The translations under genes were made by a program, and so were the position numbers. Positions 13,424-27,935 of a stretch of DNA of 35,332 bases are shown in pieces (position 1 is the first letter of the stretch; the number at the start of each line of letters is the position of its first letter). This DNA is from an uncultured Gemmiger sp. GTDB taxonomy: Bacteria > Bacillota > Clostridia > Oscillospirales > Ruminococcaceae. The stretch is taken from the NCBI GenBank assembly GCA_949295035.1, contig CASFJO010000051.1, positions 1-35,332 on the forward strand, given 5' to 3'. The notes beneath the pieces are model-generated. The model worked only from the letters and a program-made list of their open reading frames with translations. It made no database searches and had not been told where the DNA came from.

Positions 13424-14407
13424 ATGGCGCACACCGTCATGGTCACCGGCGCGGACGGCTTTATCGGCAGCCACCTCACCGAGGAACTGGTCAAAAAGGG
13501 CGAGCGTGTCAAGGCGTTCTGCTATTACAATTCGTTCGGGAGCTGGGGCTGGCTGGACAGCCTGGAGCCGGCTGTGAAAAATGAGATCGAGGTCTTTATG
13601 GGGGACATCCGGGACCCCAACGGGGTGCGCACCGCCATGGAGGGCCAGGAGATCGTCTACCATCTGGCGGCCCTGATCGCCATCCCCTTCAGCTACCACA
13701 GCCCCGACAGCTATGTGGACACCAACATCAAGGGCACCCTGAACGTGCTCAACGCCGCCCGGCAGGTGGGCACATCCCGGCTGCTGGTGACCAGCACCAG
13801 CGAGGTGTACGGCACCGCGCAGTATGTGCCCATCGACGAAAAACATCCCTTCCAGGGCCAGAGCCCCTATTCCGCCACCAAGATCGGCGCCGACCGCCTG
13901 GCCGAGAGTTTTTACCGCAGTTTTGACCTGCCGATCACCATCGTGCGGCCTTTCAACACCTATGGCCCCCGCCAGAGCGGCCGGGCGGTCATCCCCACCA
14001 TCATCACCCAGCTGCTCAGCGGGCAGACCGAGATCAAGCTGGGCAGCCTGACCCCCACCCGGGACTTCAACTACGTCAAGGACACCGCCGCCGGCTTCAT
14101 GGCCCTGGCGGGGTGCCCCGCCGCGGTGGGTCAGGAGGTCAACATCGCCACCGGGCAGGAGCACTCCATCGGGGATCTGGCCGACGAGCTGATCCGCCAG
14201 ATCAACCCCGCGGCCCGGATCGTCTGCGACGAGCAGCGCCTGCGCCCGGAAAAGAGCGAGGTCAACCGTCTGCTGGGCTGCGCCGACAAGCTGCGCGCCA
14301 TGACCGGCTGGGCCCCCCGGTATACCTTTGAGCAGGGCCTGGCGGAGACCATCGCGTTTTTGCGCACCCACATGGACAGCTACAAACCCGGGGTGTACAG
14401 CCTGTAA
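13424..14407 (+). CDS. legB: NAD-dependent sugar 4,6-dehydratase, LegB-like
   Basis: A 327-residue extended short-chain dehydrogenase/reductase. It has the nucleotide-binding TGADGFIGSH near the N terminus, the catalytic STSEVYG segment and YSATK (Tyr148, Lys152), and the substrate-side RPFNTYGPRQS. It most resembles the LegB group that dehydrates an NDP-N-acetylglucosamine to the 4-keto-6-deoxy sugar, the first step to legionaminic acid; pairing with the LegC-like aminotransferase in the same operon supports this. ATG at 13424 is eight bases after AAAGGA; an upstream ATG at 13415 overlaps that site. The LegC partner is displaced 7 kb downstream by membrane-protein genes. Confidence 0.9.
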   Translation: MAHTVMVTGADGFIGSHLTEELVKKGERVKAFCYYNSFGSWGWLDSLEPAVKNEIEVFMGDIRDPNGVRTAMEGQEIVYHLAALIAIPFSYHSPDSYVDTNIKGTLNVLNAARQVGTSRLLVTSTSEVYGTAQYVPIDEKHPFQGQSPYSATKIGADRLAESFYRSFDLPITIVRPFNTYGPRQSGRAVIPTIITQLLSGQTEIKLGSLTPTRDFNYVKDTAAGFMALAGCPAAVGQEVNIATGQEHSIGDLADELIRQINPAARIVCDEQRLRPEKSEVNRLLGCADKLRAMTGWAPRYTFEQGLAETIAFLRTHMDSYKPGVYSL

Positions 14408-14471: not shown

Positions 14472-16133
14472 ATGAACGAACGGACTTTTGCCCGCCGGCT
14501 GCCCCGGCCGCCGGCCTGGGCCGGCTGGCTGCTGGGCCTTGCGCCGGTCACGGCGCTGGCGGTGGGGCTGGTGTACTACTGGCGGGTGTTCTATGCCTTT
14601 GACCGGATGGCCGCGGGCCTGTTCACCCTGCTGGCCTGCGCGGCGGCCTGGGCGCTCTATCTGGCGGTGTTCCTGACGGTGCGGCTGGGCCGCAGTTTTG
14701 CCGGGCGGGCCGCCGTGTGCATCTTTGTGTGCGGGGCGCTGTTCTGCTTTGCCAACCCGCCGCTCCAGGCCCCCGACGAGACCGACCACTACCTGCGCAG
14801 CTACGCCATCAGCCTGGGCCGACTGGACTTTGACGCCGACCGGGGCTACCCCGAGGATGTGGACCGGCTGCTGGCGGCTTTTCCGGGGGCGTGGGTCAAC
14901 GCCCACACCAGCGTGGGCTGGGGCAAGAACTCCCAGGGGGCCGAGGCCCCCTATGACTCCTCCGGCTACGCGCTCAAACAGTGGGGGGAGGACGGGGAGG
15001 TGCTGTCCATCGCGGACAGCTGTGCCCAATACCTGAGCGGCGCGCCGGCAAAACAGCCGGTCACCGAGCCGATCAGCCTGATGATCCTGCCCTTTGTGCC
15101 CCAGGCGCTGGGGATGGTGCTGGCCCGGCTGTTCGGGCTGGGGGCGCTGGGCTGCCTGTACGCCGGGCGGCTGGCCAACCTGGCCTGCTACACCCTGTTG
15201 TGCTGGCTGGCGCTGCGGGGCTGCCGGCGGTACCAGCCGGTGTTCCTGGGCGTGATGCTGCTGCCGCTGAGCTTGTATATGGCGGCTTCCCTGAGCTACG
15301 ACGCCACCCTGCTGGGCTTTTACTATCTTGTGGCCAGCTACTACTGCCGGGACGAGATCCGGGATAAGGATGTGTACGCCTTCTTCGCGGCGTTTGTGCT
15401 GATGAACGTGGCCAAGCCCTATCTGAACCTGCTGTGGGTGGCGCTGCCGCTGATCTTGCCCCGCCGGGCCTGGAAGACCCGCTGGAAAAAATGGCAGGTG
15501 GCGCTGGCGGCGCTGGCCGCCGCGCTGCTGGTCACCCGGTTCATCGAGTGGTACGGGGTGGCGTTCCGGTCAAACTACGGGGAGATCGAGCGGATGATCG
15601 AAGGGGTGGACCAGCTGCCCCAGCTGGCCTTCCTGCTCTCCAATCCGCTGCGGTATATCGCGGTGCTGGCCGGCACCCTCTACGAAAATCAGTTCTTCAT
15701 CGGGCAGCTGGGAGTGTTCGGGTCGCTGGACCTGCCCATCCCTGCCCTGAACATCCTCTGCCCGGCGGTGCTGCTGTTCTGCGCGGCGCTGTCGGTGCAT
15801 GAAAAAAGCAGCCTGCGCCCGCTGCCCGCCGCCGGGCTGGGGGCGCTGGGGGTGGTGTACATCGCCGGCGCCATGACCGCCATGTACATCACCTACACCC
15901 CCGTGGGGATGGTGCGGGTGATCGGGCTGCAGGCCCGGTACTTTTTGCCGGTGTTCCTGATGCTGTTGGTGCTGGTGGCGGCGCTGCTGAGCCATGTGCT
16001 GGAGCCCAGGCTGGCCGGCGCCGGCAAGGCGCTGAACGTGGCCCTGGCCACCGCCGGCGGCACGGCGCTGCTGGGGGCGGTGCTGCTGTTCCAGCACTGG
16101 TTCATCGGGCCGGTGTACACCATATATCTGTGA
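14472..16133 (+). CDS. DUF2142-type polytopic membrane protein, probable GT-C glycosyltransferase
   Basis: A 553-residue protein with about a dozen hydrophobic segments. After the second or third helix comes QAPDETDHYLRSYAIS (PDE at 101-103), the hallmark of DUF2142 proteins and positioned like the catalytic acidic pair in the first outer loop of GT-C glycosyltransferases. Such proteins would use a polyprenyl-phosphate sugar to modify a surface polymer outside the membrane (inference; DUF2142 is not biochemically settled). A large outer region (about residues 105-190) precedes the remaining helices. ATG at 14472 behind GCGAGG is the family-consistent start. Lies between LegB and the duplicated membrane module. 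Confidence 0.82.
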   Translation: MNERTFARRLPRPPAWAGWLLGLAPVTALAVGLVYYWRVFYAFDRMAAGLFTLLACAAAWALYLAVFLTVRLGRSFAGRAAVCIFVCGALFCFANPPLQAPDETDHYLRSYAISLGRLDFDADRGYPEDVDRLLAAFPGAWVNAHTSVGWGKNSQGAEAPYDSSGYALKQWGEDGEVLSIADSCAQYLSGAPAKQPVTEPISLMILPFVPQALGMVLARLFGLGALGCLYAGRLANLACYTLLCWLALRGCRRYQPVFLGVMLLPLSLYMAASLSYDATLLGFYYLVASYYCRDEIRDKDVYAFFAAFVLMNVAKPYLNLLWVALPLILPRRAWKTRWKKWQVALAALAAALLVTRFIEWYGVAFRSNYGEIERMIEGVDQLPQLAFLLSNPLRYIAVLAGTLYENQFFIGQLGVFGSLDLPIPALNILCPAVLLFCAALSVHEKSSLRPLPAAGLGALGVVYIAGAMTAMYITYTPVGMVRVIGLQARYFLPVFLMLLVLVAALLSHVLEPRLAGAGKALNVALATAGGTALLGAVLLFQHWFIGPVYTIYL

Positions 16134-16184: not shown

Positions 16185-18167
16185 ATGACCCTGTTCTGGG
16201 GCCTTGTGGTACTGGCGGCCCTTGCGTGCGGCAGCCTGGCCCTGGCCGAACTGCTGGACCGGGACCCGGCCCTGCTGGCGCTGCCGGTGCTGGCCGGGGC
16301 GGTGCTCTGGCTGTGGCTGGGCGGTGTGGCGGGCCTGCTGCTGCCCGCGGCCTGGCTGTGGCTGGCGGCCATGGCCGGGCTGACGGTGTTTGCGGCGCTG
16401 GGCGCCGGGCCGGCCGCTTTGCTGCGCCGGGCCATGAGCCCGGCCTTTGGGCTGTTCGCGGCGGCCTCGCTGGCGTTTTGGCTGGTGTTCGCGGTGCGCC
16501 AGCCGCTGTTCACCCAGTGGGACGAGTTCACCCTCTGGGGCAGCGCCTGCAAGATGACCTGCGAGCAGGACCTGCTCTTCCCGGCCGCCCGGGGCTATCT
16601 GGCGGGGCGGGGCAGCCTGCCCGGCATGATGCTGGTGGGCTACCTGTTCCAGTTTGCCGCGCCGGGCTTTGCCGAATGGGCGGTCTTTGCGGCCTACGAT
16701 ACCGTATATATGGCGGTGGCGGCCCTGGCGGCCTCGCTGGCCGGCCGCGGCTGGCGGGGCGCGGTGCTGACCTTTACCGCCGTGGTGAGCCTGCCCTTTT
16801 TCTTGGCGGCGTATCAGCCGGGTGCGGTGAGCCAGGTGTATCAGTCCGCCATGGGGGACCTGGCGCTGGCGTTTGTTTTTGGCGGGGCGGTCTGCCTGTA
16901 TCTGGCTGTGGGCGATTCGCCTGCCGGCCTGGCCGGGTGCGCTCTCACGCTGATGTTCCTGACCCTGATCAAGGATATCGGCCTGGCCTACGCGCTGGTG
17001 GCGGTGCTGGTGATGGCGCTGGCCCGTGCCTTCGGCCAAAAGCCGGTGCGGCCGCGCCGTGTGCTGGCGGCCGTGGGCCTGGCGCTGGCGGCGGCGGTGC
17101 TGATCGCCGGGGCGTTCGTTCTCTGGAGCGTCTATGTGATGAACGCCAGCGGCGTGGACAAGAACGCCGTGGGCGGCGAGGGGGAGAGCGTGGGCTATGC
17201 CACCGTGCTGCTGGGCGGTCTGGCCCAGCTGGCGGGGATCGGCCGCACCGAAAAGTTCTCCGCCGTTCTGGCCCTGATGCTCAAGGCCCCTTTGACAACT
17301 CCGGTCTGCCTGCTGGGGCCGGGGGCCGTGGCCGCGGCGATCGCCCTGCTGCTGCAGGGGGCGGCGGCTTTCTGCGCCGCGCCGGGCGCCGCCCGCCGCC
17401 GGGTGCTCTGGGCGAGCGCCGGGCTGTGGGTAGGGCTGGCGGCCTTTTGGGTGTTCCACCTGTTTTTGTACGTGTATAACTTTGCCGATATCGAGGCGTA
17501 CCAGCTCAAGGACTACGCGCGCTACCTGGGGGCCGTTCACACCGGCATGACCCTGGCCAGCCTGGGGATGCTGGCCGGCGCCTGCGCGGGCAAAAAGGGC
17601 CGGGCCGCCCTGGCCCGGCTGGGGGTCTGCGGCGCGGCGGCGCTGGCGGCGGTCTGCCTGTGGCGGGGGCCGCGCACCGGATTCTGGAACTACCCCACCA
17701 GCCTGTACACCGCCCGGCAGGAGATCAAGGCCCGGGCAGCCTCTGTCAACGGCTATCTGGACTGGGACGATCAGGTGCTGCTGATCTGCCAGGGAGACGA
17801 TGTCTCCCGCTGGTACTACTACGGCTATGAACTGCACGCCACCATCGCCAACGGATTCGGCGGCAGCAGCTACGGGGATGAGCGGCTGGACAACCGCTGG
17901 CCCACCACCGGCATGACCCTGCTCCCCCATTTTACCGACGCCAACGAGTTTGAAACGGTCTGCAACCGGAACGGCCTGGTGGCCTTTTTGCAGGAGGCGC
18001 AGTACGACTACATCCTGGTGGACTGGACCGACGAGTATTTCTGCGAGGAGTTCGCCCCGCTGTTCGACGCGCCCATCCCGCTGGGCACCACCCACGAGCC
18101 GCTGCTGTTCAAAATTGAGGACGGCGGCGCGCGCATGACCCTGGTGGCGGGAGGTGAGGGCGCATGA
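16185..18167 (+). CDS. Module copy 1: 660-residue GT-C-like membrane protein
   Basis: I do not recognise a named family. The first ~490 residues hold about twelve hydrophobic helices; an acidic pair, Asp113-Glu114 in FAVRQPLFTQWDEFTLWGSACK, lies in the first outer loop as in GT-C glycosyltransferases. The last ~165 residues form a soluble domain with QVLLICQGDDVSRWYYYGYEL and YDYILVDWTDEYFCEEFAPLF. The protein at 18777 has the same length, the same DE motif, and the same two C-terminal blocks, so the two are paralogues. Probable role: transfer of a lipid-linked sugar or processing of a surface glycan, inferred from topology and operon. Ends ATGA-overlapped with its small partner. Confidence 0.8.
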   Translation: MTLFWGLVVLAALACGSLALAELLDRDPALLALPVLAGAVLWLWLGGVAGLLLPAAWLWLAAMAGLTVFAALGAGPAALLRRAMSPAFGLFAAASLAFWLVFAVRQPLFTQWDEFTLWGSACKMTCEQDLLFPAARGYLAGRGSLPGMMLVGYLFQFAAPGFAEWAVFAAYDTVYMAVAALAASLAGRGWRGAVLTFTAVVSLPFFLAAYQPGAVSQVYQSAMGDLALAFVFGGAVCLYLAVGDSPAGLAGCALTLMFLTLIKDIGLAYALVAVLVMALARAFGQKPVRPRRVLAAVGLALAAAVLIAGAFVLWSVYVMNASGVDKNAVGGEGESVGYATVLLGGLAQLAGIGRTEKFSAVLALMLKAPLTTPVCLLGPGAVAAAIALLLQGAAAFCAAPGAARRRVLWASAGLWVGLAAFWVFHLFLYVYNFADIEAYQLKDYARYLGAVHTGMTLASLGMLAGACAGKKGRAALARLGVCGAAALAAVCLWRGPRTGFWNYPTSLYTARQEIKARAASVNGYLDWDDQVLLICQGDDVSRWYYYGYELHATIANGFGGSSYGDERLDNRWPTTGMTLLPHFTDANEFETVCNRNGLVAFLQEAQYDYILVDWTDEYFCEEFAPLFDAPIPLGTTHEPLLFKIEDGGARMTLVAGGEGA

Positions 18168-18763
18168 GCGGCAAACGCTGGCTGATCTTTTTCTACGCGG
18201 CGGGGCTGGTTCTCTGGCTGGCCGCGGCCGTGCTGGGCTTTGTGCGGGCGGGGCAGCCCGCCGCCATTGCCCCCGGCGAGTTCACCCTGGTGAGCGCGGT
18301 GGAGGCTGAGCCCGCCGCCGGCGCCCCCGCCGGATCGGTGACCTTCACCTCCACCGACGCGGACCCGAAACTTTTTTGGGAAGGCGCGGCCCGGGTGGAC
18401 ACCGTAACGGTGTATATGAGCCAGGACCGGCCCTCCGGCGGGGTGACCCTGTATTACCGCGTTGCCGGCCAGACCGACTATTCCGAGCGGCAAAAGGCCT
18501 GGGCCGACCAGACCGCCCCCGGGGTATGGCGGTTTGAATTGGGCGGTGTGGAGGTGACCGGCCTGCGGCTGGACCCGGACAGCGAGGGCGGCGTGACCGG
18601 CTGCCTGAGTGCCGTGGCCCTCAACGAGCCGCGGCCCTTGTGGCGGCGGCTGATCCCGGACGCCGGCGCGCTGCTGGCGCTGGCGGCGGCTCCGTTGGTG
18701 CTGGCCGCTTTGGCCGGGGAGCTGACCGCCCTGGCCGCCCCGCTGGACAAAAAACGATGGTAA
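18164..18763 (+). CDS. Module copy 1: small bitopic protein with external beta domain
   Basis: A 199-residue protein with an N-terminal membrane helix (LIFFYAAGLVLWLAAAVLGF), an outside domain of about 120 residues, and a C-terminal membrane helix (AGALLALAAAPLVLAALAGE). The outer domain looks all-beta and carries TDADPKLFWEG, VTLYYRV and VTGLRLDPDSE, which recur in the partner at 20756. It resembles a carbohydrate-binding jelly-roll by pattern only. Four-base ATGA overlap with the large protein suggests a fixed ratio and a physical complex. Function unknown. Confidence 0.78.
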   Translation: MSGKRWLIFFYAAGLVLWLAAAVLGFVRAGQPAAIAPGEFTLVSAVEAEPAAGAPAGSVTFTSTDADPKLFWEGAARVDTVTVYMSQDRPSGGVTLYYRVAGQTDYSERQKAWADQTAPGVWRFELGGVEVTGLRLDPDSEGGVTGCLSAVALNEPRPLWRRLIPDAGALLALAAAPLVLAALAGELTALAAPLDKKRW

Positions 18764-18776
18764 GGAGACACACCGA

Positions 18777-20759
18777 ATGTGGGATGTATTGCTGGCCTTG
18801 CTGGCCCTGCTGGGCCTGACGGCCTTTCTCACCCTGTACGGGCGGTTGCCCGCCGCGCTGGGCCCGCTCACCGCGCTGAGCCTGGCGGGCCTTTGGCTGA
18901 CCGTCTGGGGCATGGCCGGGGCGCTGACCGCGGGCGGCTGGACCCTGTATCTGGCTTCCTGGGGGCTGGGCGGCTGGGCGCTGGTGCGCCGCCGCGAGCG
19001 CTGGCGCCAGCTGCTGACCCCGGGCCTTGTGCTGTTCGCGGTGATGGCGCTGGGGGTTACGGTGTACTTCGCGGTGCGCCAGCCCATCCCCACCGATTTT
19101 GACGAGTATTCCCTCTGGGCTACCGCGGCCAAGCTGACCAAGGCGAACGACGCCCTCTATACCGTGGGCGAGACCGGCACCCCCTGGCAGGCCACCCAGA
19201 CCCCCAGCCTGATCCTGATGGGATACTTTGCCCAGTTTCTGGGCAAATTTGCCTACTGGAAGGTGTACGTGGGGTACGACTGGCTGCTGTTTGCCTGCTT
19301 CGCGGCGGTGCTGGGGCGGCTGGGCTGGAAACAGTATGCCCTGGCGGTGCCGGCGGCGGTGGCCTGCTGGTGCGCCCCCTGGTTCTTCACCACCTACAAC
19401 CGCACCATCTTTTTGAGCAAGGTGTATATGAACAGCTACGGCGATATCCCCGCCGGGGTGCTGTTCGGCGGGGCGGTGGCTCTGTGGCTGGCCCTGCGCG
19501 CCGGCGCCGGCCCCCGCTGGCCGGTGCCGGTGGTGCTGGCTTTCGCCGCCCTGGCCAAGGACAATCTGTTCCCGGTGATGCTGGTGGCCGCCGGTATGGC
19601 CGCGGCGGACTGGTTCTTTTTCCCGGACGCCGGGCCCTTCCGCGAGGGCTGGCCCCGGCGGCTGGGATTCTCGGCCCTGGCCGGCGCGGTCTCACTGGCG
19701 GCCTATCTGGTCTGGAGCCGCTATATCGGCGCCCTGGCCGCCCTCAACGCCGCTGAAGGTGGCATGGGGGTCACCAGCCAGAGTCTGCCCTCGGTGGTGC
19801 TGAACGGCGTGAAGATGCTGCTGGGCCTGCCGGTAGAAAGCTACTATGAGGAGCGCCGCTGGCGCTTTGTGCAGGCCGGGCAGGACATGGCGCGCGCCTT
19901 TTTGCGGGACGAACTGTCCATGGTGGGGCCGGGCATCGTGGTGCTGGGGCTGATCCTGGGGCTGCTGGCGGCGGGGATCCTGCTGGCCCGCACCGGCCGG
20001 CTGCGGGCACGGATCGGGCTGCTGGCGGCGGTGGCGCTGGCGGGTTTTGCGGGCTACAACTTTGTGCTGCGGCTCAGCTATGCCTTTATTTTCCGGGAAG
20101 AGCAGTGCGTGGGCCTGGTGGACTACAACCGCTATATCTATCCCTATTATATCGGGCTGTTCCTGATCGCGCTGGCCTGCCTGCTGGCGGCCGCCCGGGA
20201 ATACCCCGCCCCGTGCCCCCGCGCTCTGGCGGCGGGGGCGCTGGTGCTGGCGCTGGGCGGCGGGATGCTGCTGCGCACGAACCAGTTCATCCTGCCCCAG
20301 TACAGCGTGCTGGGGTTCAGCCAGGCGGAGTTTGACGACCAGAACCTGATCCAGCAAAAGGCCGACGCGGTGGCCGCGGCGGTGGAGCCGGGCAGCCGGA
20401 TCTTCTTTGTGAGCCAGGGGGACAACGGCCTGCGCTGGTTCAGTTACAGCTGCGATCTGCTGCCGCTGATCCTGGATTACAGCGGTGATCTGGAAACGGG
20501 CGGCGGCGGTGGCGGCACCTTCGGACTGCCCGAGCTGGATAACGGCAATCTGTACTACCACCCCTACACCCGGGAGGACTTTTGCGCTCTGGTGGAGGAG
20601 AGCGGCTGCGCCTACATCCTGGTGGACGCGGTGGACGAGATCTTTGTGGAGAGCTACGGCAGCCTGTTTGCCGACGGGCTGGCCGGCGCGGCGGACACGC
20701 TGCTCTACCGGGTGACCGGGGACGGCTGGCAGCCGGTGGAAATGGAGGTGCCCCGATGA
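18777..20759 (+). CDS. Module copy 2: 660-residue GT-C-like membrane protein
   Basis: Paralogue of the 16185 protein, with identical length. Matching features are FAVRQPIPTDFDEYSLWATAAK (Asp109-Glu110), an outer-loop region, about twelve helices, and a soluble C-terminal domain with IFFVSQGDNGLRWFSYSCDLL and CAYILVDAVDEIFVESYGSLF. A run of six Gly (about residue 575) marks a flexible loop specific to this copy. Sequence divergence is considerable, so the duplication is old or the copies have specialised for different donors or acceptors (inference). Start ATG at 18777 follows AAGGAG after the copy 1 small gene. Confidence 0.8.
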   Translation: MWDVLLALLALLGLTAFLTLYGRLPAALGPLTALSLAGLWLTVWGMAGALTAGGWTLYLASWGLGGWALVRRRERWRQLLTPGLVLFAVMALGVTVYFAVRQPIPTDFDEYSLWATAAKLTKANDALYTVGETGTPWQATQTPSLILMGYFAQFLGKFAYWKVYVGYDWLLFACFAAVLGRLGWKQYALAVPAAVACWCAPWFFTTYNRTIFLSKVYMNSYGDIPAGVLFGGAVALWLALRAGAGPRWPVPVVLAFAALAKDNLFPVMLVAAGMAAADWFFFPDAGPFREGWPRRLGFSALAGAVSLAAYLVWSRYIGALAALNAAEGGMGVTSQSLPSVVLNGVKMLLGLPVESYYEERRWRFVQAGQDMARAFLRDELSMVGPGIVVLGLILGLLAAGILLARTGRLRARIGLLAAVALAGFAGYNFVLRLSYAFIFREEQCVGLVDYNRYIYPYYIGLFLIALACLLAAAREYPAPCPRALAAGALVLALGGGMLLRTNQFILPQYSVLGFSQAEFDDQNLIQQKADAVAAAVEPGSRIFFVSQGDNGLRWFSYSCDLLPLILDYSGDLETGGGGGGTFGLPELDNGNLYYHPYTREDFCALVEESGCAYILVDAVDEIFVESYGSLFADGLAGAADTLLYRVTGDGWQPVEMEVPR

Positions 20760-21403
20760 AGCGTTTGCGAAACTGGGCGCGCCGGCTGCCGGCTCCCATC
20801 CCGCTGGCCTGTTACGCGCTGGCGCTGGTGTTCTGGCTGGGCAGCGCCCTGGCGGTGCTGGGCTGGGAGGCCGCGGGCCGGGCCGGCGGCAGGCTGACCC
20901 GGACCACCCTGGACCCGTCCGCCCTGGAACAGGCGGACATTGCCCCGGCGGGTAACGGGGACTGGGTCACCACCGGCGGCGACCCCCAGCTGATCTGGCG
21001 CAATCCGGACGGCCGGCTGGTGCGCAGCCTGCTGATGGAGGTGACCTTCAGCCAGACCCCCCGGGAGGTCTGCCTCTACTACACCACCCGGGCAGACGAG
21101 CCCTTCAGCAGCGGCAAGCGGGTGTTCGGCGAAAAGCAGGACGACGGCAGTTACCGGTTCCGCCTGCCCGCCGGCGCCATCGCCGCTTTGCGGCTGGACC
21201 CCTGCAGCCCCGCGGCGGAACAGGGGGCCATCGCCCTGACGGACCTGACCCTGACCTTGAACGTGGATACCCCCTGGTACGCCGCCTTCAACCCGGGCTG
21301 GAGCGGGCTGTTCGGGTATCTGGTCTGGCCGGGCCTCGCGGCGGCGGCGCTGCGCTGGGCCTGGGACGGGGCGCGCTGGCTGCGCCGGCGAAAAGGAGCA
21401 TAA
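20756..21403 (+). CDS. Module copy 2: small bitopic protein with external beta domain
   Basis: A 215-residue counterpart of the 18164 protein: N-terminal helix (IPLACYALALVFWLGSALAV), outer domain with TGGDPQLIWRN, VCLYYTT and AALRLDPCS in the same order, then a C-terminal hydrophobic segment (GLFGYLVWPGLAAAALRW) and a basic tail. Shares only scattered motifs with copy 1, confirming an old duplication of the whole two-gene unit. ATGA overlap with the large gene is also conserved. Confidence 0.78.
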   Translation: MKRLRNWARRLPAPIPLACYALALVFWLGSALAVLGWEAAGRAGGRLTRTTLDPSALEQADIAPAGNGDWVTTGGDPQLIWRNPDGRLVRSLLMEVTFSQTPREVCLYYTTRADEPFSSGKRVFGEKQDDGSYRFRLPAGAIAALRLDPCSPAAEQGAIALTDLTLTLNVDTPWYAAFNPGWSGLFGYLVWPGLAAAALRWAWDGARWLRRRKGA

Positions 21404-21479: not shown

Positions 21480-22643
21480 ATGGCAACGTTCATCCCCCTG
21501 TCGGTGCCCAACTTCGGCGGGCACGAAAAGGAATACGTCAACGACGCGGTGGTCAGCGAGTGGGTGTCCACCGGCGGCAGCAAGGTGGCCGATTTTGAAC
21601 AGGCCATCGCCGACTATGTGGGCATGCCCCGGGCGGTGGCCTGCAACAGCGGGTCCTCCGGGCTGCACCTGGCGGCCATGGTGGCCGGGATCCGGCGGGG
21701 CGAGGAGGTCATCGTGCCCAGCCTGACCTTTATCGCGGCGGTCAACCCGGTCACCCGGTACATCGGGGCCGAGCCGGTGTTCATCGGCTGCGACGACAGC
21801 CTGTGCATCTGCCCCGACGCGGTGGAGGCGTTCTGCCGCGACCGGTGCGAGATGCGCGGCGGGGGGTTGTACAACAAGACCAGCGGCGCCCGGGTGCGGG
21901 CGCTGGTGGCGGTGCATGTGTTCGGCAACATGGCCGACCTGCCCCGCCTGACCGACATCGCCCGCCGCTACAATCTGGTGCTCATCGAGGACGCCACCGA
22001 GGCCCTGGGCACCCGGTACACCTCCGGCCCCTTCGCGGGCAAAATGGCCGGCACCATCGGCGATGTGGGGGTGTACAGCTTCAACGGCAACAAGATCATC
22101 ACCACCGGCGCGGGCGGCATGGTGGTCTCCAACCATCCCGACTGGGCCGAGCACGCCAAGCACCTGTCCACCCAGGCCAAGAGCAACGAACTGCAGTTCT
22201 TCCACGACGAGGTGGGCTACAACTACCGGATGACCAACCTGCAGGCCGCCCTGGGCCTGGCCCAGCTGGAGCAGCTGGAGGGCTTCATCGCCCACAAGCA
22301 CGCCCGCTGGCAGCAGTACAAGGACGCGCTGGACGGGGTGAACGGCTACCGCATCCTGGGCTTCCGGGAGGATTGCACCCGCCCCAACAAGTGGTTCTAC
22401 TCGCTCTATCTGGCCGACGAGCGGTATGACCGGGACGCCCTGATCCGCAAGCTGCACGAGCAGGCCATCCAGACCCGGCCGGTCTGGGCGCTGATCCATC
22501 AGCAGGCGGACTACGGCCGCAACGAGGCCTACGCCATGGAAAAGGCCGAGGACTACCGGGCCCATATCGTCAACCTGCCCTGCTCCACCAACCTGAGCGA
22601 GGCGGACTGCCGGCGGGTCATCGACGCGCTGCTGGCGCTGTAA
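21480..22643 (+). CDS. legC: PLP-dependent sugar aminotransferase, LegC-like
   Basis: A 387-residue DegT/DnrJ/EryC1 family aminotransferase. The cofactor Lys is Lys205 in YSFNGNKIITTGAGGM, the Asp that holds the pyridine nitrogen lies in IEDATEALG (about 170-177), and the phosphate-binding Ser/Gly region reads CNSGSSGLH. In legionaminic-acid pathways this enzyme converts the 4-keto-6-deoxy sugar made by LegB to the 4-amino sugar. ATG at 21480 lies nine bases after AAAGAGGT. Confidence 0.93.
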   Translation: MATFIPLSVPNFGGHEKEYVNDAVVSEWVSTGGSKVADFEQAIADYVGMPRAVACNSGSSGLHLAAMVAGIRRGEEVIVPSLTFIAAVNPVTRYIGAEPVFIGCDDSLCICPDAVEAFCRDRCEMRGGGLYNKTSGARVRALVAVHVFGNMADLPRLTDIARRYNLVLIEDATEALGTRYTSGPFAGKMAGTIGDVGVYSFNGNKIITTGAGGMVVSNHPDWAEHAKHLSTQAKSNELQFFHDEVGYNYRMTNLQAALGLAQLEQLEGFIAHKHARWQQYKDALDGVNGYRILGFREDCTRPNKWFYSLYLADERYDRDALIRKLHEQAIQTRPVWALIHQQADYGRNEAYAMEKAEDYRAHIVNLPCSTNLSEADCRRVIDALLAL

Positions 22644-22666: not shown

Positions 22667-23713
22667 ATGCTGCACATCGAGGAGTTGTATATCGAGCCTT
22701 CCGCCACCGTGCTGGAGGCGATGAAAAAGCTGGACGAGACCGGCCAGCGGATCCTGTTCGTGGCACCGCAGGGCCGGCTGGCGGCGGTGCTCACCGACGG
22801 GGACGTGCGCAAGTACATCCTGCGGGGCGGCAGCCTGGACGGGCCGGTGAGCGGCGCGGCCAACTACCATCCGGTCAGCCTGCCGGTGAGCGAGCGGGGC
22901 AGCGCCCGGGCGGTGCTGGAGCAAAAGGGCATCGACGCGCTGCCGCTGCTGGACAAAAAAGGCCATATCCTGGACATCGTGTTCGCCAGCGGCTTTGATA
23001 TCGACAACCGCAAGCCCGCCGGGCTGCCGGTGGTCATCATGGCGGGGGGGCTGGGCACCCGGCTCTACCCCTACACCAAGATCCTGCCCAAGCCCCTGAT
23101 CCCGGTGGGGGAGATGCCCATCATCGAGCACATCATCCACCGGTTCCGGGATTTCGGCTGCCGGAAGTTTTATCTGGTGGTCAACTACAAAAAGAACATG
23201 ATCAAATCCTACTTCAACGACCTGGACAAGGACTATGAGGTGGAGTATATCGACGAGGAGGAGCCGCTGGGCACCGGCGGCGGGCTCTGCCTGCTGAAAG
23301 GCCGGCTGGACGAGCCGTTCTTTCTGTCCAACTGCGACATCCTGATCGACGCGGATTTCGGCGACATCTACCGCCGCCACAAGGAGAGCGGCAGCCTCAT
23401 CACCATGGTCTGCGCCTTCAAGCACTTCACCGTGCCCTATGGCGTGGTGGACCTGGGCGAGGGGGGCGAGATCCGGGCCATGCGGGAAAAGCCGGAGATG
23501 AACTTTTTGACCAACACCGGCGTCTACGTGGTGGAGCCCCGGGTCGTCCGGGAACTGGAGGACGGCAAAAAACAGGGATTCACCGACATCATCGAGCGGT
23601 ACCGGGCCGCCGGCGAGCGGGTGGGGGTGTACCCCATCCGGGAACAGAGCTGGATGGACATGGGCCAGATGGAAGAACTGGACGCCATGCGCCGCAAGAT
23701 GGAAAACCAGTAA
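22667..23713 (+). CDS. ptmE: CBS-domain sugar-1-phosphate nucleotidyltransferase, PtmE-like
   Basis: A 348-residue two-part enzyme: residues 1-110 form a pair of CBS repeats (VLTDGDVRKYILRG, GIDALPLLDKKGHILDIV), and from residue 121 a nucleotidyltransferase starts with VVIMAGGLGTRLYPYTK and ILPKPLIPVGE. This layout is that of Campylobacter PtmE, which makes GDP-glucosamine for the legionaminic pathway. Its presence suggests the pathway here also runs on a GDP sugar rather than UDP (inference). CBS repeats usually sense adenylate or adenosyl ligands. Confidence 0.88.
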   Translation: MLHIEELYIEPSATVLEAMKKLDETGQRILFVAPQGRLAAVLTDGDVRKYILRGGSLDGPVSGAANYHPVSLPVSERGSARAVLEQKGIDALPLLDKKGHILDIVFASGFDIDNRKPAGLPVVIMAGGLGTRLYPYTKILPKPLIPVGEMPIIEHIIHRFRDFGCRKFYLVVNYKKNMIKSYFNDLDKDYEVEYIDEEEPLGTGGGLCLLKGRLDEPFFLSNCDILIDADFGDIYRRHKESGSLITMVCAFKHFTVPYGVVDLGEGGEIRAMREKPEMNFLTNTGVYVVEPRVVRELEDGKKQGFTDIIERYRAAGERVGVYPIREQSWMDMGQMEELDAMRRKMENQ

Positions 23714-23728
23714 AAAGGGGAGAGCACC

Positions 23729-24724
23729 ATGAGCATCTGCATCATCGCCGAGGCGGGCGTGAACCACAACGGCAGCCTGGAACTGGCCAAGAGGATGGCC
23801 CTGGCCGCCAAGGAGGCCGGGGCGGATATCGTCAAGTACCAGACCGCCGTGCCGGAACTGGTGGTGAGCAGGTTCGCCCCCAAGGCCGAGTATCAGAAGT
23901 CCACCACCGACGCGGCCGAGAGCCAGCTGGAGATGATCCGGCGGCTGCATTTCAGCTTTGAGGCCCACCGGGAACTGAAGGAATACTGCGATTCCATCGG
24001 CATCCAGTACCTGTCGGCGGCCTTTGATATCCCCAGCGTGGAGTTTCTGGCTACCCTGAAACTGCCGGTGGCCAAGATCCCCAGCGGGGAGATCACCAAC
24101 CTGCCCTATCTGGAGGCGGTGGCCGCCACCCGCACGCCGGTGATCCTGTCCACCGGCATGAGCACCCTGCCCGAGATCGAGGACGCGCTGAGCGTGCTGG
24201 AAGAGGGCGGCTGCCCCGGCGTGACATTGCTGCACTGCAACACCGAGTATCCCACCCCCTATGAGGACGCGAACCTGCTGGCCATGCTGGACCTGGCCGA
24301 GCAGTTCGGGCTGCCGGTGGGCCTGTCCGACCACACCCCCGGCTGGGAGTGCGATGTGGCTGCCGCCGCGCTGGGCGCCACCGTGATCGAGAAGCACTTC
24401 ACCCTGGACAAGGACATGGAAGGCCCGGACCAGAAGGCCAGCCTGGACGTGGCGGAACTCACCGCCATGATCACCGCGGTGCGCCGCACCGAGGCGGCGC
24501 TGGGCACCGGACGCAAGGCGGTGAGCCCCAGCGAGGCCAAGAACAAGCCGGTGGCCCGCAAGAGCATCGTGGCCGCCCGGCCCATCCGCAAGGGCGAGGT
24601 CTTTACCGCGGAGAACCTGACCACCAAGCGCCCCGGCACCGGGGTGAGCCCCATGCGCTGGCATGAGGCGCTGGGCCAGGCCGCCAAACGGGACTTTGCC
24701 GAGGACGAGCCCATCGAACTGTAA
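23729..24724 (+). CDS. legI: Nonulosonic acid synthase, NeuB/LegI family
   Basis: A 331-residue synthase that condenses phosphoenolpyruvate with a six-carbon amino sugar to form a nine-carbon sialic-acid-like sugar. The TIM barrel opens IAEAGVNHNGSLELAKRM, with ADIVKYQT, KIPSGEITN, LLHCNTEYP, VGLSDHT and IEKHFTLDK blocks all present. The C-terminal SAF (antifreeze-like) domain reads KSIVAARPIRKGEVFTAENL. Whether the product is legionaminic, neuraminic or another acid is inferred from LegB/LegC neighbours. Confidence 0.95.
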   Translation: MSICIIAEAGVNHNGSLELAKRMALAAKEAGADIVKYQTAVPELVVSRFAPKAEYQKSTTDAAESQLEMIRRLHFSFEAHRELKEYCDSIGIQYLSAAFDIPSVEFLATLKLPVAKIPSGEITNLPYLEAVAATRTPVILSTGMSTLPEIEDALSVLEEGGCPGVTLLHCNTEYPTPYEDANLLAMLDLAEQFGLPVGLSDHTPGWECDVAAAALGATVIEKHFTLDKDMEGPDQKASLDVAELTAMITAVRRTEAALGTGRKAVSPSEAKNKPVARKSIVAARPIRKGEVFTAENLTTKRPGTGVSPMRWHEALGQAAKRDFAEDEPIEL

Positions 24725-24795: not shown

Positions 24796-25989
24796 ATGTG
24801 CCAGCCGGTCAAACTGGCGGTGGTCACCGGCACCCGGGCCGAGTACGGCCTGCTGCGCCCGGTGATCCGAAAACTTATGGCCCGCCCGGATGCGCGGCTG
24901 TCGGTGCTGGTAACCGGGGCCCATCTGGCGGCGGAGTACGGCAATACCGTGGCCGAGATCGAGGCCGACGGGGTGCCCATCGCCGCCCGCATCCCCATCC
25001 TTGTGCCGGGCGAGAGCGGCCCTCTGGCCACCGCCGACGCGGTGGAGAAGGCCATCCACGGCTTTGTGCGCTGGTTCGCGGAACGCCGGCCCGCCTGTGT
25101 GCTGGTGCTGGGAGACCGGTACGAGATCTTTGCCGCGGCCCAGGCGGCGGCCTTTGCCCGGGTACCGGTGGCCCACATCAGCGGCGGCGACGTGACCCTG
25201 GGCGCGGCGGACGACTGGTACCGCCACTGCATCACCAAGATCGCCCACCTGCATTTCCCCAGCTGCGCCCAGTCCGCCCGGCGGGTGGTGCGGATGGGGG
25301 AGCCGCCCTCCGCCGTATTCAACGTGGGCGGCCTGGGGGACGAGAACATCCGCACCATAGCCCTGCTGCCGCCGGAGGAACTGAGCCGCAGCATCGGCTT
25401 TGATCTGACAAAGCCCTACGGGCTGGTCACCTTCCACCCGGAGACCGCCGGCGGGGCCGACCCGTCCGCCCAGTCCGCCGCGCTGCTGGCGGCCATGGAC
25501 GCGGTGAGCGATGCCGCCGGCCTGCGCTGGCTGGTCACCAAGGCCAACGCCGACGCGGGCGGCGCGGTCATCAACCAAATGCTGGACGACTGGGCCGCCG
25601 CCCGTCCCGGCATCGCCGCGGTGCGCGCCAGCCTGGGGGTGGTGCGGTACCTCTCCGCCATGAAGGGGGCGGCGGTGGTGCTGGGAAATTCCTCCAGCGG
25701 GGTGGTGGAGACCCCCACCTTCGGGGTGCCCGCCGTCAACGTGGGCCACCGGCAGAAGGGCCGCCCGGTCTGCGAAAACGTGATCGGCTGCCCAGCGGAC
25801 AGAGCCGCCATCGAGGCCGCTCTGTACAAGGCGCTGGACCCGGCTTTTCTGCCGGTGGCCCAGGCGGCCAAAAGCCCCTACAACGGGGGCGATACCAGCG
25901 GAAAGATCGTGGAGATTTTGCTGCGGGAGGTGCGCCGGCCGGATTTCGGCGCGCCCAAAACCTTTTATGAAGGGGAGATACCGAGATGA
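24796..25989 (+). CDS. legG: Hydrolysing UDP/GDP-sugar 2-epimerase, NeuC/LegG family
   Basis: A 397-residue GT-B-fold enzyme that inverts C2 of the NDP-amino sugar and releases the free sugar used by the synthase. Diagnostic blocks are VVTGTRAEYGLL, LGDRYE, RHCITKIAHLHF, TFHPET and the C-terminal VLGNSSSGVVE. The usual HIHGGE block reads HISGGD here. ATG at 24796 follows AAGGAGG. Overlaps the next gene as ATGA. Confidence 0.93.
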   Translation: MCQPVKLAVVTGTRAEYGLLRPVIRKLMARPDARLSVLVTGAHLAAEYGNTVAEIEADGVPIAARIPILVPGESGPLATADAVEKAIHGFVRWFAERRPACVLVLGDRYEIFAAAQAAAFARVPVAHISGGDVTLGAADDWYRHCITKIAHLHFPSCAQSARRVVRMGEPPSAVFNVGGLGDENIRTIALLPPEELSRSIGFDLTKPYGLVTFHPETAGGADPSAQSAALLAAMDAVSDAAGLRWLVTKANADAGGAVINQMLDDWAAARPGIAAVRASLGVVRYLSAMKGAAVVLGNSSSGVVETPTFGVPAVNVGHRQKGRPVCENVIGCPADRAAIEAALYKALDPAFLPVAQAAKSPYNGGDTSGKIVEILLREVRRPDFGAPKTFYEGEIPR

Positions 25990-26963
25990 AACTGTTGATC
26001 GTGGGCCTGGGCAGCATGGGCAAGCGCCGCGCCCGGCTGCTGCGGGGCCTTTTGCCGGATGTGGCGATCGCGGGGGTGGATTCCGCCCCCGGCCGCCGGG
26101 AGGAAGCCCGGGCCTTGGGCATCACCCCCTATGAGAGCCCGGACGCGGCCCTGGCGGCGGGCGGCTTTGACGGGGCGCTGGTCTGCACCGCGCCCTTGAG
26201 CCACGCGGGGATCATCGGCCGGCTGCTGGACGCAAAGCTGCCGGTGTTCACCGAGCTGAACCTGGTGGACGACGGCTACGACGAGAATATCCGCAAGGCC
26301 AGAGAAAACGGGGTGCCGCTGTTCCTCTCCAGCACCATGCTCTACCGGGGGGAGACCCAATACATCAAACAGCGGGTGAAAGCGTTCGGCCGGCCGGTGA
26401 ACTACATCTACCACATCGGCCAGTACCTGCCCGACTGGCACCCCTGGGAAAACTACAAAAACTTTTTTGTGGGGGATGCGCGCACCGGCGGGGTGCGGGA
26501 GATCTTTGGCATCGACCTGCCCTGGCTGCTGGACGCGTTCGGCCCGGTGGCCGGTTTCAGCGCCATGAAGGACAAGATCAGCGATCTGGAGATTACCTAT
26601 CCGGACAGCGTCTTTGTCACCCTGCGCCATCAAAACGGGGTCAAGGGGATGCTGGCGGTGGACGTGGTCAGCCCCAAGGCGGTGCGCAACTTTGAGTGCT
26701 TCGGCGACGGGCTGCACCTGTTCTGGGAGGGCAACCCCCGCTCCCTCTATGAGTTCGACAAGCAAAGCGGCGAGAAGCGGCCGGTGAACACCTACGCCCG
26801 GGTGGAGCAGGACCCCCGCTACTCCGACAACATCGTGGAGAACGCCTACGTGGACGAACTGGCCAACTTTCTGGGGGTGCTGGCCGGCGCCGAAAAGCCC
26901 CGGTACAGCTTTGAACAGGACAAGGAGACCATCCGGCTGATCGAGGCCATCGAGCGAGCCTGA
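25986..26963 (+). CDS. Gfo/Idh/MocA oxidoreductase without the usual EKP motif
   Basis: A 325-residue protein with the N-terminal Rossmann GLGSMGKRR and a C-terminal beta-sheet domain. The conserved EKP motif, whose Lys takes part in catalysis in this superfamily, is replaced by Glu90-Leu91-Asn92 in VFTELNLVDD. The rest of the fold looks complete (YRGETQYIKQRV, GGVREIFGIDLPWLLDAFG). It may be a non-catalytic partner of the adjacent oxidoreductase, or work by another mechanism; PtmF-like genes occur in similar loci. ATGA overlap with legG implies coupled expression. Confidence 0.8.
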   Translation: MKLLIVGLGSMGKRRARLLRGLLPDVAIAGVDSAPGRREEARALGITPYESPDAALAAGGFDGALVCTAPLSHAGIIGRLLDAKLPVFTELNLVDDGYDENIRKARENGVPLFLSSTMLYRGETQYIKQRVKAFGRPVNYIYHIGQYLPDWHPWENYKNFFVGDARTGGVREIFGIDLPWLLDAFGPVAGFSAMKDKISDLEITYPDSVFVTLRHQNGVKGMLAVDVVSPKAVRNFECFGDGLHLFWEGNPRSLYEFDKQSGEKRPVNTYARVEQDPRYSDNIVENAYVDELANFLGVLAGAEKPRYSFEQDKETIRLIEAIERA

Positions 26964-26974
26964 GGAGGAGGACC

Positions 26975-27913
26975 ATGGACGTGCTTTTTGTGGGGCTGGG
27001 CTCCATTGGCACCCGGCACCTGAACAACCTGCATACCGTCGCCCGGCGGCGGGGCATCCCGGTACACGCCGACGCGCTGCGCAGCGGCGCCCGCCCGCTG
27101 CGGGAGGGCGCGGCCCAGCTGCTGCGGGCCCAATACATGCGGCTGGAGGACCTGCCGCCCCGATACGACGCCATCTTCATCACCAACCCCACCAGCCTGC
27201 ACCGGGATACCCTGGCGGCGCTGCGGGGCAGGGCCGGGGCTTTCTTCATCGAAAAGCCCATCTTTGACGACCCGGATGCGGACCTGGCCGCCCTGGGCCT
27301 GGCCGATGACCAGGGCCAGAAAGCCTATGTGGCGGCCCCCATGCGCTGGTGCGGCGCCATGCTGGCGCTGAAGGAAAAGCTGCCCGGCCTGCGGCCTTAC
27401 TCGGCGCGGGTGATCTGCTCCTCCTACCTGCCGGACTGGCGGCCCGGGGTGGACTACCGCACCGTCTACTCCGCCCACCGGGAGATGGGCGGCGGGGTGA
27501 CCATCGACCTGATCCACGAGTGGGACTATCTGGTGGAGCTGTTCGGCATGCCGCTGGAGAGCTACAACCTGCGGGGCACCTACTCGGACCTGGAGATCGA
27601 CTCGGACGATCTGTCGGTCTACATCGCCCGGTATCCCACCCTGCTGGCCGAGGTGCATCTGGACTACTTCGGCCGCACCTACCGGCGCTCCATCGAACTG
27701 TTCTGCAAAGAGGGCACCGTCACCGCCGATTTCGGCGCGGGTACGCTGACCCTGGCCGACGGCACGGTGGAGCGGTACGAGGAGCCGGTGAACGAGCGGT
27801 ATCTGCGGGAGATGGAGTATTTTGTCACCTACGCCCTCACCGGCGCGGGGCCCAGCTGCAACACCCCGGCCACCGCCCTGCAGGTGCTGCGGCTCACATT
27901 AGGTAAGGCGTGA
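26975..27913 (+). CDS. Gfo/Idh/MocA oxidoreductase with EKP motif
   Basis: A 312-residue NAD(P)-dependent oxidoreductase: GLGSIGTRH nucleotide loop, IEKP (residues 92-95), and TIDLIHEWDYLVELFG containing the catalytic-type His/Asp. It is not closely similar to its upstream neighbour outside the fold. Likely changes the oxidation state or stereochemistry of the sugar precursor or of the final nonulosonate; the step is not known. Its stop codon falls in a small hairpin. Confidence 0.85.
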   Translation: MDVLFVGLGSIGTRHLNNLHTVARRRGIPVHADALRSGARPLREGAAQLLRAQYMRLEDLPPRYDAIFITNPTSLHRDTLAALRGRAGAFFIEKPIFDDPDADLAALGLADDQGQKAYVAAPMRWCGAMLALKEKLPGLRPYSARVICSSYLPDWRPGVDYRTVYSAHREMGGGVTIDLIHEWDYLVELFGMPLESYNLRGTYSDLEIDSDDLSVYIARYPTLLAEVHLDYFGRTYRRSIELFCKEGTVTADFGAGTLTLADGTVERYEEPVNERYLREMEYFVTYALTGAGPSCNTPATALQVLRLTLGKA

Positions 27914-27919: not shown

Positions 27920-27935
27920 GGGAGGGATCGGTATT

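What the first reader, a model, noticed from the sequence alone, without database searches (positions are those of the whole stretch)
16185..21403. Tandemly duplicated two-gene membrane module inside a nonulosonate operon
Two successive units each consist of a 660-residue polytopic protein (acidic DE pair in the first outer loop, soluble C-terminal domain) overlapping by ATGA with a ~200-residue protein that has a helix at each end and an outer beta-rich domain. Copies share motifs in order: FAVRQP...DE[FY]..LW, QGD...RW..Y and YILVD..DE.F in the large protein; DP.L.W, LYY and LRLDP in the small one. Both large copies are exactly 660 residues. I know no named family for either. The pairing suggests a GT-C transferase with an obligate outer accessory, two versions with different donor or acceptor. 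This is the best candidate for an undescribed system.
Basis: partly seen in the sequence, partly recalled or inferred. Interest (0 to 1): 0.82.

Follow-up and report, generated by a model that had tools for sequence, protein, structure and literature searches.

The report
Probable two-part sugar transferases, gut bacteria
Two neighbouring gene pairs in a gut bacterium each appear to encode a membrane sugar-transferring enzyme plus a dedicated outer-surface partner, tied to the making of a sialic-acid-like sugar; neither protein family has a name, and the pair is a concrete candidate for a kind of partner that reviewers have only speculated about.

Summary
Confirmed: two large/small gene pairs (L1-S1, L2-S2; 660+199 and 660+215 aa), each joined by an ATGA overlap, lie in a legionaminate operon of a Gemmiger-like genome. 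The copies are old paralogues (~30% identical); no Pfam, NCBIfam or PDB family matches them convincingly. In related loci 113 of 123 decidable L genes are followed by S, and the pairs co-diverge (r = 0.86; within-locus swaps at most 0.37). Of 100 relatives, the 21 that hit L2 are the 21 with LegB (19 over cut-off, 2 split). L resembles DUF2142 by profile (92%; controls at most 6%), keeps an acidic pair in an outer loop, and 6 of 12 distant L genes lie near GT2-GtrA lipid-sugar synthases. The S domain is elsewhere fused to DUF2142, to a PMT_2-type protein and, in tandem, to an ABC exporter. Best reading: L is the catalytic subunit of an outer-face GT-C-type transferase or polymerase, S its glycan-recognition subunit, acting on a legionaminate-containing surface glycan. 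An unnamed soluble protein, perhaps GT-B-like, recurs upstream in relatives and may attach legionaminate inside the cell. New variant of a known kind.

The parts
16185..18167 (+). L1: 660-aa polytopic protein of an unnamed family, probable GT-C-type catalytic subunit (copy 1)
   Evidence: paralogue of L2; member of alignment A3; topology
18164..18763 (+). S1: 199-aa protein, helix - outer domain - helix; partner of L1
   Evidence: (ATGA overlap)
18777..20759 (+). L2: 660-aa probable GT-C-type catalytic subunit (copy 2); DE motif D109-E110, RY motif R452-Y453
20756..21403 (+). S2: 215-aa outer-domain partner of L2
   Evidence: (ATGA overlap)
14472..16133 (+). DUF2142 (PF09913) polytopic protein; in related loci the next labelled gene after DUF2142 is L or S; remote relative of L
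   Evidence: E 1.3e-37; 58 of 58, same strand
13424..14407 (+). LegB, NAD-dependent 4,6-dehydratase (TIGR04180)
   Evidence: 500 bits, cut-off 475
21480..22643 (+). LegC family aminotransferase (TIGR04181)
   Evidence: 456 bits, cut-off 420; the scan was made on 21489-22643
22667..23713 (+). PtmE-like CBS/nucleotidyltransferase (gene name recalled)
   Evidence: nucleotidyltransferase models; the best ones listed are all under their cut-offs
23729..24724 (+). LegI/NeuB-type nonulosonate synthase
   Evidence: TIGR03569, 461 bits, cut-off 400
24796..25989 (+). LegG/NeuC-type UDP-GlcNAc 2-epimerase
   Evidence: TIGR03568, 386 bits, cut-off 236
25986..27913 (+). Two Gfo/Idh/MocA-type oxidoreductases (25986-26963 and 26975-27913)
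   Evidence: for the first; the second read from its translation only
27936..28700 (+). CMP-nonulosonate synthetase (PtmF/NeuA type; gene names recalled)
   Evidence: PF02348; the scan was made on 27930-28700

Best explanation
Each L-S unit is one two-subunit extracytoplasmic glycosyltransferase (or glycan polymerase) of the GT-C kind. L is the polytopic catalytic subunit: it would take a sugar or oligosaccharide from a polyprenyl carrier at the outer face of the membrane, with the invariant D109-E110 of the first large outer loop as the catalytic or metal site and K261, Y435 and R452-Y453 around the same face. S, held by a helix at each end, presents an outer domain that binds and positions the acceptor glycan. 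Two paralogous units plus the DUF2142 enzyme would carry out successive steps in building, polymerising or attaching a surface glycan that contains legionaminic acid, made by the surrounding pathway. Shown: anatomy, pairing, co-divergence, co-occurrence with LegB, remote similarity of L to DUF2142, fusions of the S domain to other glycan machinery. Inferred: catalysis, glycan binding by S, physical complex, and whether legionaminate is donor, acceptor or part of the repeat.
For: Pairing: S directly after L in 113 of 123 decidable L genes in the window plus 71 loci (129 L in all, 6 cut by contig ends); 80 of the 113 L genes end in ATGA and 12 in GTGA. Co-divergence: tree-distance correlation 0.864 for 111 pairs, against at most 0.064 for random re-pairing and at most 0.369 when S copies are swapped only within a locus. 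Legionaminate link: the L2 search hits 21 of 100 relatives; LegB is over its curated cut-off in 19 of those 21, split fragments at E 1.5e-111 and 2e-96 in the other two, and over the cut-off in none of the 79 others (nearly all genomes have weaker hits to this model from related enzymes). Next labelled gene after LegB is DUF2142 in 48 of 49, after DUF2142 it is L or S in 58 of 58. GT-C character: L profile (131 sequences) vs DUF2142 profile (59) 92.1%, E 6e-7, over 253 columns of the membrane part, against reversed DUF2142 0.8%, PMT_2 1.4%, YfhO 5.6%, MBOAT 1.0%; invariant D, E, W, K, Y, R-Y; GT2-GtrA fusion within one gene of L in 6 of 12 distant loci (neighbours in four loci were not scanned). 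S as glycan module: homologous to N-terminal extensions of DUF2142 proteins in loci where the S gene is missing, and fused to a PMT_2-type protein and, twice in tandem, to an ABC2_membrane exporter beside an ABC ATPase and genes resembling rml sugar genes. YfhO-like genes recur in 11 loci (Pfam checked on L104 and L050); PMC8035078 section 8 lists YfhO as a GT-C of wall-polymer glycosylation and speculates that small GT-C enzymes may need a second, acceptor-binding protein.
Against: No Pfam GT-C model matches the L sequences scanned (32, 10 distant candidates), and no PDB chain matches either L profile at E up to 10. L-DUF2142 comparisons with smaller alignments were negative (2-3%); only larger ones gave 79-92%, the 92% match does not include the DE motif, and comparison with PMT_2 and YfhO is negative. 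No GtrA gene lies on the window's contig (four matches elsewhere in the genome), no lipid-sugar synthase was recognised in the operon, and legionaminate is CMP-activated, not lipid-activated. A soluble family of unknown kind (~440 aa) that recurs upstream of legB in relatives could be the transferase that uses CMP-legionaminate in the cytoplasm, which would leave L-S only later steps. Ten L genes in the clade lack a directly following S. Glycan binding by S rests on context alone.
Confidence: 0.6

Rival explanations
1. L is a repeat-unit polymerase and S its chain-length regulator (Wzy/Wzz-like job; the lactococcal WpsI/WpsH pair is the nearest described case), so the module polymerises a legionaminate-containing repeat made inside the cell rather than adding side sugars.
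For: S has the helix - large outer domain - helix layout; the lactococcal model pairs a DUF2142 polymerase with such a protein (PMC12599335 section 15; PMC10821137 passages); S copies are matched to their own L; a recurrent soluble, possibly GT-B-like family upstream could supply the cytoplasmic legionaminate transfer.
Against: No Wzz model is among the weak Pfam hits of S. S-domain fusions also occur with a PMT_2-type protein and an ABC exporter, which needs a wider role than chain-length control. No flippase was recognised in the operon. Two or three L-S units in many loci is odd for a polymerase.
Confidence: 0.25
2. Legionaminate in these bacteria goes to flagellin, and L-S only travels with the operon.
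For: Legionaminate commonly decorates flagellin in other bacteria (recalled); the window's own genome has a flagellin gene.
Against: 10 of the 17 genomes with L and S lack flagellin, 8 of them at least 98% complete; no PF01973 (Maf-type, recalled) in 20 genomes (of the 14 control genomes only archaea rang, so this negative is weak). The co-occurrence of L with LegB includes genomes without flagellin.
Confidence: 0.05
3. L is a transporter or flippase for the nonulosonate glycan rather than a transferase.
For: 13-14 predicted helices; the S domain is fused to an ABC exporter in one genome.
Against: Invariant acidic and basic residues map to the outer face and there is a large C-terminal domain; remote similarity to DUF2142, not to the MBOAT control; some distant relatives sit near GT2-GtrA, which already includes a proposed flippase.
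Confidence: 0.07

Closest known systems
DUF2142 (PF09913) membrane proteins, including lactococcal WpsI/WpsJ
   Same: Polytopic, acidic motif in the first large outer loop, neighbour of L in the operon; profile comparison with L 92%; in lactococci proposed as polymerase or transferase of cell-wall polysaccharide
   Different: L scores with no DUF2142 model, has more predicted helices before the acidic loop (4 against 3) and a large C-terminal domain, and its partner S is a separate gene
Lactococcal WpsI/WpsH polymerase and co-polymerase
   Same: GT-C-like protein plus a partner with a large outer loop between its two ends, in a cell-wall glycan cluster
   Different: There the DUF2142 protein is the one with the partner; no sequence comparison with WpsH was made; no legionaminate pathway is mentioned in the passages seen
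Multi-component transmembrane glycosylation systems of Gram-positives (CsbB/GtcA/YfhO and others)
   Same: Outer-face GT-C-type enzyme decorating surface polymers; GT2-GtrA beside some distant L; YfhO in some L-S clusters
   Different: No GtrA in this operon; a dedicated outer partner gene, which the review only speculates about
Eukaryotic GPI mannosyltransferase I, PIG-M/PIG-X (Gpi14/Pbn1)
   Same: A glycosyltransferase (GT-C, recalled) with an essential non-catalytic partner; [quoted passage not shown]
   Different: No sequence relation tested; ER enzyme of GPI synthesis; partner topology differs (recalled)
Legionaminic acid operons (LegB, LegC, LegI, LegG, PtmE, PtmF; names partly recalled)
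   Same: The set is present
   Different: Carries DUF2142 and one to three L-S units inside the operon, and two Gfo/Idh genes

Membership tests
GT-C glycosyltransferase superfamily (for L) | Polytopic membrane protein with an acidic (DxD or modified) motif in an outer loop | tested here: met
   13-14 hydropathy peaks; loop charges place loop 101-162 outside (my reading); D109-E110 invariant in 32 of 32
GT-C glycosyltransferase superfamily (for L) | Sequence homology to an accepted or proposed GT-C family | tested here: inconclusive
   DUF2142 92% with controls up to 6%, but 2-3% with smaller alignments; PMT_2 and YfhO negative; DUF2142 membership in the GT-C clan is recalled
GT-C glycosyltransferase superfamily (for L) | GT-C fold | not testable with these tools
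   Structure prediction switched off; no PDB relative
DUF2142 (for L) | Score over the Pfam cut-off | tested here: not met
Three-component transmembrane glycosylation system | Lipid-sugar synthase and GtrA flippase encoded with the GT-C | tested here: not met
   No GtrA match on the window's contig, four elsewhere in the genome; present within one gene of distant L in 6 of 12 loci
Wzz/PCP chain-length regulators (for S) | Match to a known Wzz model | tested here: not met
   no such family among the hits
Lactococcal WpsH (for S) | Sequence homology to WpsH | not tested
   No WpsH sequence was at hand; only the layout is alike
Known carbohydrate-binding modules (for S) | Match to a CBM model or solved CBM | tested here: not met
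   best PDB hits are odorant-binding proteins at E about 0.02 over about 49 residues, and exportin at 0.08 for another alignment; judged chance
Legionaminic acid biosynthesis operon | LegB and LegC over curated cut-offs plus NulO synthase, hydrolysing epimerase and CMP-synthetase | tested here: met

The most novel reading that the evidence does not exclude
L-S units are bacterial two-subunit GT-C transferases with a separate acceptor-recognition subunit, and they move legionaminic acid itself at the outer face from a so far unknown lipid-linked nonulosonate donor. The S domain is a mobile outer glycan-recognition module shared between transferases and exporters of cell-surface polysaccharide.
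Probability: 0.17. Interest if true: 0.82.

Novelty: new variant of a known kind. Interest (0 to 1): 0.62.

Why it matters
A review of Gram-positive surface glycosylation (PMC8035078, abstract and section 8 read) speculates that small GT-C enzymes may need a second protein to bind the acceptor polymer. L-S gives a concrete, conserved, co-diverging candidate, with natural fusions of the partner domain to three kinds of glycan machinery, so the idea becomes directly testable. It also points to a legionaminate-containing surface glycan in the Gemmiger/Fournierella/Faecalibacterium group of gut commensals. No listed paper announces this in its title or the abstract start shown: 7 listed of 7 with 'legionaminic acid' and 'Faecalibacterium', 3 of 3 with 'legionaminic acid' and 'GT-C', 15 listed of 24 and 20 listed of 9,478 for a broad query (weak). 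One review passage says that the composition and structure of a Faecalibacterium prausnitzii capsule are unknown (PMC12413058).

Tried and rejected
Rejected: recent duplication (L1/L2 only ~30% identical, and both types recur across many loci); flagellin as the general destination; L as a PMT_2 or YfhO member; S as homologue of the outer N-terminal domains of the two other DUF2142 proteins in this genome (3.6% and 0.5%, although those two resemble each other at 96%); S as homologue of L's own C-terminal domain (0.1%).

Led nowhere: PDB searches; Pfam and NCBIfam searches of the S core; S-type searches over 391 class genomes (one search found only the own genome, with the DUF2142 extension, one weak hit, not followed); plasmid searches (none; 106 and 107 one Subdoligranulum record, plus three chance matches at E 3-4); a paper search for GT-C accessory subunits returned none.

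Looking again I found that one of the recurrent families is an unnamed ~440-aa soluble family, possibly GT-B-like. I therefore lowered the best explanation from 0.62 to 0.60 and the novel case from 0.22 to 0.17, and raised the polymerase rival from 0.22 to 0.25.

Dropped rows: 6 of 38 L and 2 of 31 S were left out of alignments A3 and A4, 2 of 113 pairs were dropped because the aligned part of L was under 550 residues, 20 of 30 PMT_2 loci gave a usable reading frame; L frames of the named loci outside 550-760 aa were left out of the larger set. The 71 loci overlap with genomes and include close relatives, so counts are not independent events. The scan kept the best 80 of 91 matches.
Full report
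What is there. The window comes from a genome related to Gemmiger: the closest named relatives of L2 are Gemmiger sp. An120 and two Gemmiger MAGs at 90-94% identity. Between legB and legC of a CMP-legionaminate operon lie a DUF2142 gene and two large/small gene pairs, L1-S1 and L2-S2. The small gene starts inside the stop of the large one (ATGA) in both. L1/L2 and S1/S2 are true but old paralogues. No Pfam, NCBIfam or PDB family matches either convincingly; the hits with E under 1 are single-member or short matches to unrelated families.

Pairing. In the window, the 20 stretches and locus L014, profile searches gave 31 S for 38 L. In a second, named set (71 loci from Gemmiger, Fournierella, Faecalibacterium, Subdoligranulum, Ruthenibacterium, Pygmaiobacter, Anaerofilum and others) plus the window, 129 L genes were found; 6 are cut by contig ends, 113 have S directly downstream and 10 do not. 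Of the 10, L144, L145 and L155 have a neighbouring DUF2142 protein with an S-like N-terminal domain; in L123 and L140 the gene is the first of an L-L-S array; L138, L151 and L152 show only L among the labelled genes; L153 has a DUF2142 cut by the contig end; L154 has an S upstream but none after its L. Loci carry one, two or three L-S units. The trees of L and S agree: distance correlation 0.864 over 111 pairs, at most 0.064 for random re-pairing, and at most 0.369 when S copies are exchanged only within the same locus. So each S has followed its own L through duplication and divergence. Relatedness of the genomes inflates the raw value; the within-locus control keeps that relatedness.

Link to legionaminate. 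Searching 100 relatives with L2 finds 21 positive genomes. LegB is over its curated cut-off in 19 genomes, all L-positive; the two remaining L-positive genomes (G016, G049) have LegB in two complementary pieces on different contigs (best E 2e-96 and 1.5e-111). Counting these, it is 21 of 21 against 0 of 79 (Fisher p about 5e-22; within the family 21 of 21 against 0 of 40; the genomes are not independent). Weaker hits to the LegB model, from related enzymes, bring the genomes with any match to 98 of 100. In G043 L and LegB are on different contigs, in G041 and G019 about 23-27 kb apart, and both are still present. In the 72 loci the next labelled gene after LegB is DUF2142 in 48 of 49 cases, and after DUF2142 it is L or S in 58 of 58, all on the same strand.

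Other recurrent neighbours. Six unlabelled families recur in at least four loci: MBOAT (21 loci; Pfam checked on L117, L137 and L144, and on L039 outside this set), a ~323-aa family with a sub-threshold DUF1574 match (15 loci), YfhO (11 loci; Pfam checked on L104, and on L050 outside the set), a ~446-aa family (11 loci), and two more in 11 and 5 loci, the first of which may be spurious antisense frames. The two proteins of the ~446-aa family scanned singly have no Pfam match (L035, L142); of 9 members 3 match UDP-GlcNAc 2-epimerase (PF02350, a GT-B-like fold, recalled) weakly, best E 0.004, and none a PDB chain (two chance hits at E 0.2-0.3). It looks soluble (no prediction made), has invariant R.HPSEW and WMST stretches, which recall the HP and S/T motifs of GT-B sialyltransferases (recalled, not tested), and its profile hits 27 of 206 held loci, several cut by contig ends, not the window. 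It is the best candidate here for a cytoplasmic enzyme that uses CMP-legionaminate.

What L is. Distant L homologues occur in other clostridial families (13 of 391 class genomes, including the own one). Twelve loci (one from the own genome, C62) were read; their L proteins are homologous to this clade over the full length (hhalign 100%, E 3.6e-51). In 6 of the 12 (L075, L077, L079, L081, L083, L084) a GT2-GtrA/DPMS fusion protein lies adjacent or one gene away, in a seventh (L082) a GT2; neighbours in L073, L074, L076 and L078 were not scanned, apart from one protein of L076. This is the neighbourhood expected of an enzyme that uses polyprenyl-phosphate sugars. With 131 L and 59 DUF2142 sequences, profile comparison gives 92.1% (E 6e-7) over 253 columns, while reversed DUF2142, PMT_2, YfhO and MBOAT give 0.8, 1.4, 5.6 and 1.0%. 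A smaller L set gave 88.6% and, against 13 DUF2142 sequences, 79% with the DE motif of L set against the PDE motif of DUF2142, but with low confidence along that alignment. The smallest sets gave only 2-3%. I call the relation probable, not proven. Invariant residues in 32 L are G45, L50, F87, D109, E110, W114, K261, G384, Y435, R452, Y453. Hydropathy shows 13 peaks; counting 246-262 as a further helix gives a pattern in which basic loops are inside and D109/E110, K261, Y435, R452/Y453 and the C-terminal domain are all outside (charges, reading mine). No S hit appeared in the 12 loci. The own genome has two more L-family genes.

What S is. Helix, outer domain of about 150 residues, helix, with basic flanks inside; a crude propensity profile leans to beta strands in the outer part. 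Its domain is homologous to the N-terminal extension of DUF2142 proteins in loci without an S gene: 96.8% and 96.5%, against reversed 2.7%, other outer domains and proteins up to 3.6%, and 13% for the YfhO C-terminus. Searching 100 relatives with the S profile gives 19 genomes: 17 of the 21 L-positive ones and two others. The four L-positive genomes without S are G016, G019 and G045 (DUF2142 fusion) and G041 (solitary L, 64% complete). The two others are fusions: in G047 a 566-aa ABC2_membrane exporter subunit with two tandem S domains, beside an ABC ATPase and genes that look like rmlDBCA (L203); in G063 a 653-aa protein with a PMT_2 match at the Pfam cut-off (26.0 against 26.1 bits, 30.4) and one S domain, beside YfhO (L204). 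Compared with the S alignment, which does not contain them, these three domains give 97.4, 96.7 and 90.0%. The S domain is therefore a module linked to outer-face handling of surface glycans; glycan binding is the simplest job that fits all four settings (own gene beside L, DUF2142, PMT_2 type, exporter), but it is inferred.

Mechanism. Most likely L catalyses transfer at the outer face and S holds the acceptor. Rivals: polymerase plus co-polymerase, as proposed for lactococcal WpsI/WpsH (PMC12599335 section 15; PMC10821137 passages, where one sentence gives the two names the other way round from its figure legend and from the first paper); flagellin glycosylation, disfavoured because 10 of 17 genomes with L and S lack flagellin, 8 of them at least 98% complete, with no PF01973 in 20 (weak control); transporter, disfavoured. 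Open is how a CMP-activated sugar feeds outer-face enzymes: legionaminate may be put on a lipid-linked oligosaccharide inside the cell, perhaps by the ~440-aa family, or be moved to a lipid carrier by an unknown enzyme.

Known or new. The review PMC8035078 (abstract and section 8 read) states that some larger GT-C enzymes carry outer carbohydrate-binding domains and speculates that smaller ones may need a second acceptor-binding protein. L-S fits that guess. The eukaryotic GPI mannosyltransferase I is a two-subunit case whose partner's role is still open (PMC9306709 abstract). I found no description of L or S in searches of the held open-access library, where most subscription papers are missing and several listings were capped. 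Papers seen: PMC8035078 (abstract, section 8), PMC12599335 (section 15 and passages), PMC9746298, PMC10821137, PMC12413058 and PMC13390465 (passages; the last uses the name Wps for unrelated genes), PMC9306709 (abstract); others only as search listings.

Noticed in passing
L203:6801-8501 (-) (G047:C59): ABC2_membrane exporter subunit with two tandem S-type domains between its first helix and the permease, next to an ABC ATPase and genes resembling rmlDBCA: an exporter with an outer domain of the same family as S.
   Followed up: partly
L204:6714-8675 (+) (G063:C12): PMT_2-type protein with an N-terminal S-type domain, directly after a YfhO gene.
   Followed up: partly
L127:2017-3354 (-), L205:20721-22037 (+) and 25 further loci: Unnamed ~440-aa family with invariant HP and ST stretches, weakly like UDP-GlcNAc 2-epimerases, recurring near legionaminate/L-S clusters; candidate cytoplasmic legionaminyltransferase.
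   Followed up: partly
G000:C62:28081-29949 (L073) and G000:C31 (L168:10688-12496 -): Two further distant L-family genes in the own genome; the second lies near a DUF2142 gene and a GT2-GtrA gene.
   Followed up: partly
L168:4827-6893 and L169:4150-6345 (own genome): Two other DUF2142 proteins carry a different N-terminal outer domain, related to each other (96%) but not to S: DUF2142 proteins seem to exchange outer domains.
   Followed up: partly
L085-L155 set, mostly upstream of legB: An MBOAT gene (21 loci, 19 on the opposite strand) and a ~323-aa gene (15 loci) recur beside the cluster, suggesting acylation of the same glycan; not in this window.
   Followed up: partly
L205 (OY725868.1 140000-166000): Legionaminate cluster with DUF2142 and one L-S unit on a 305-kb circular record of Subdoligranulum variabile labelled as a plasmid.
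   Followed up: partly
G000:C59:84888-85301: Flagellin gene in the own genome although three genomes of the same genus have none; real motility or contamination (2.4%) was not decided.
   Followed up: no
L040:17091-18266 (+): A calcineurin-like phosphoesterase gene sits between legG and the first Gfo/Idh gene in one relative; some other loci have a gap of similar size there.
   Followed up: no
window 25986-27913: Two Gfo/Idh/MocA-type oxidoreductases accompany this legionaminate operon here and in many related loci; their role is unclear.
   Followed up: no
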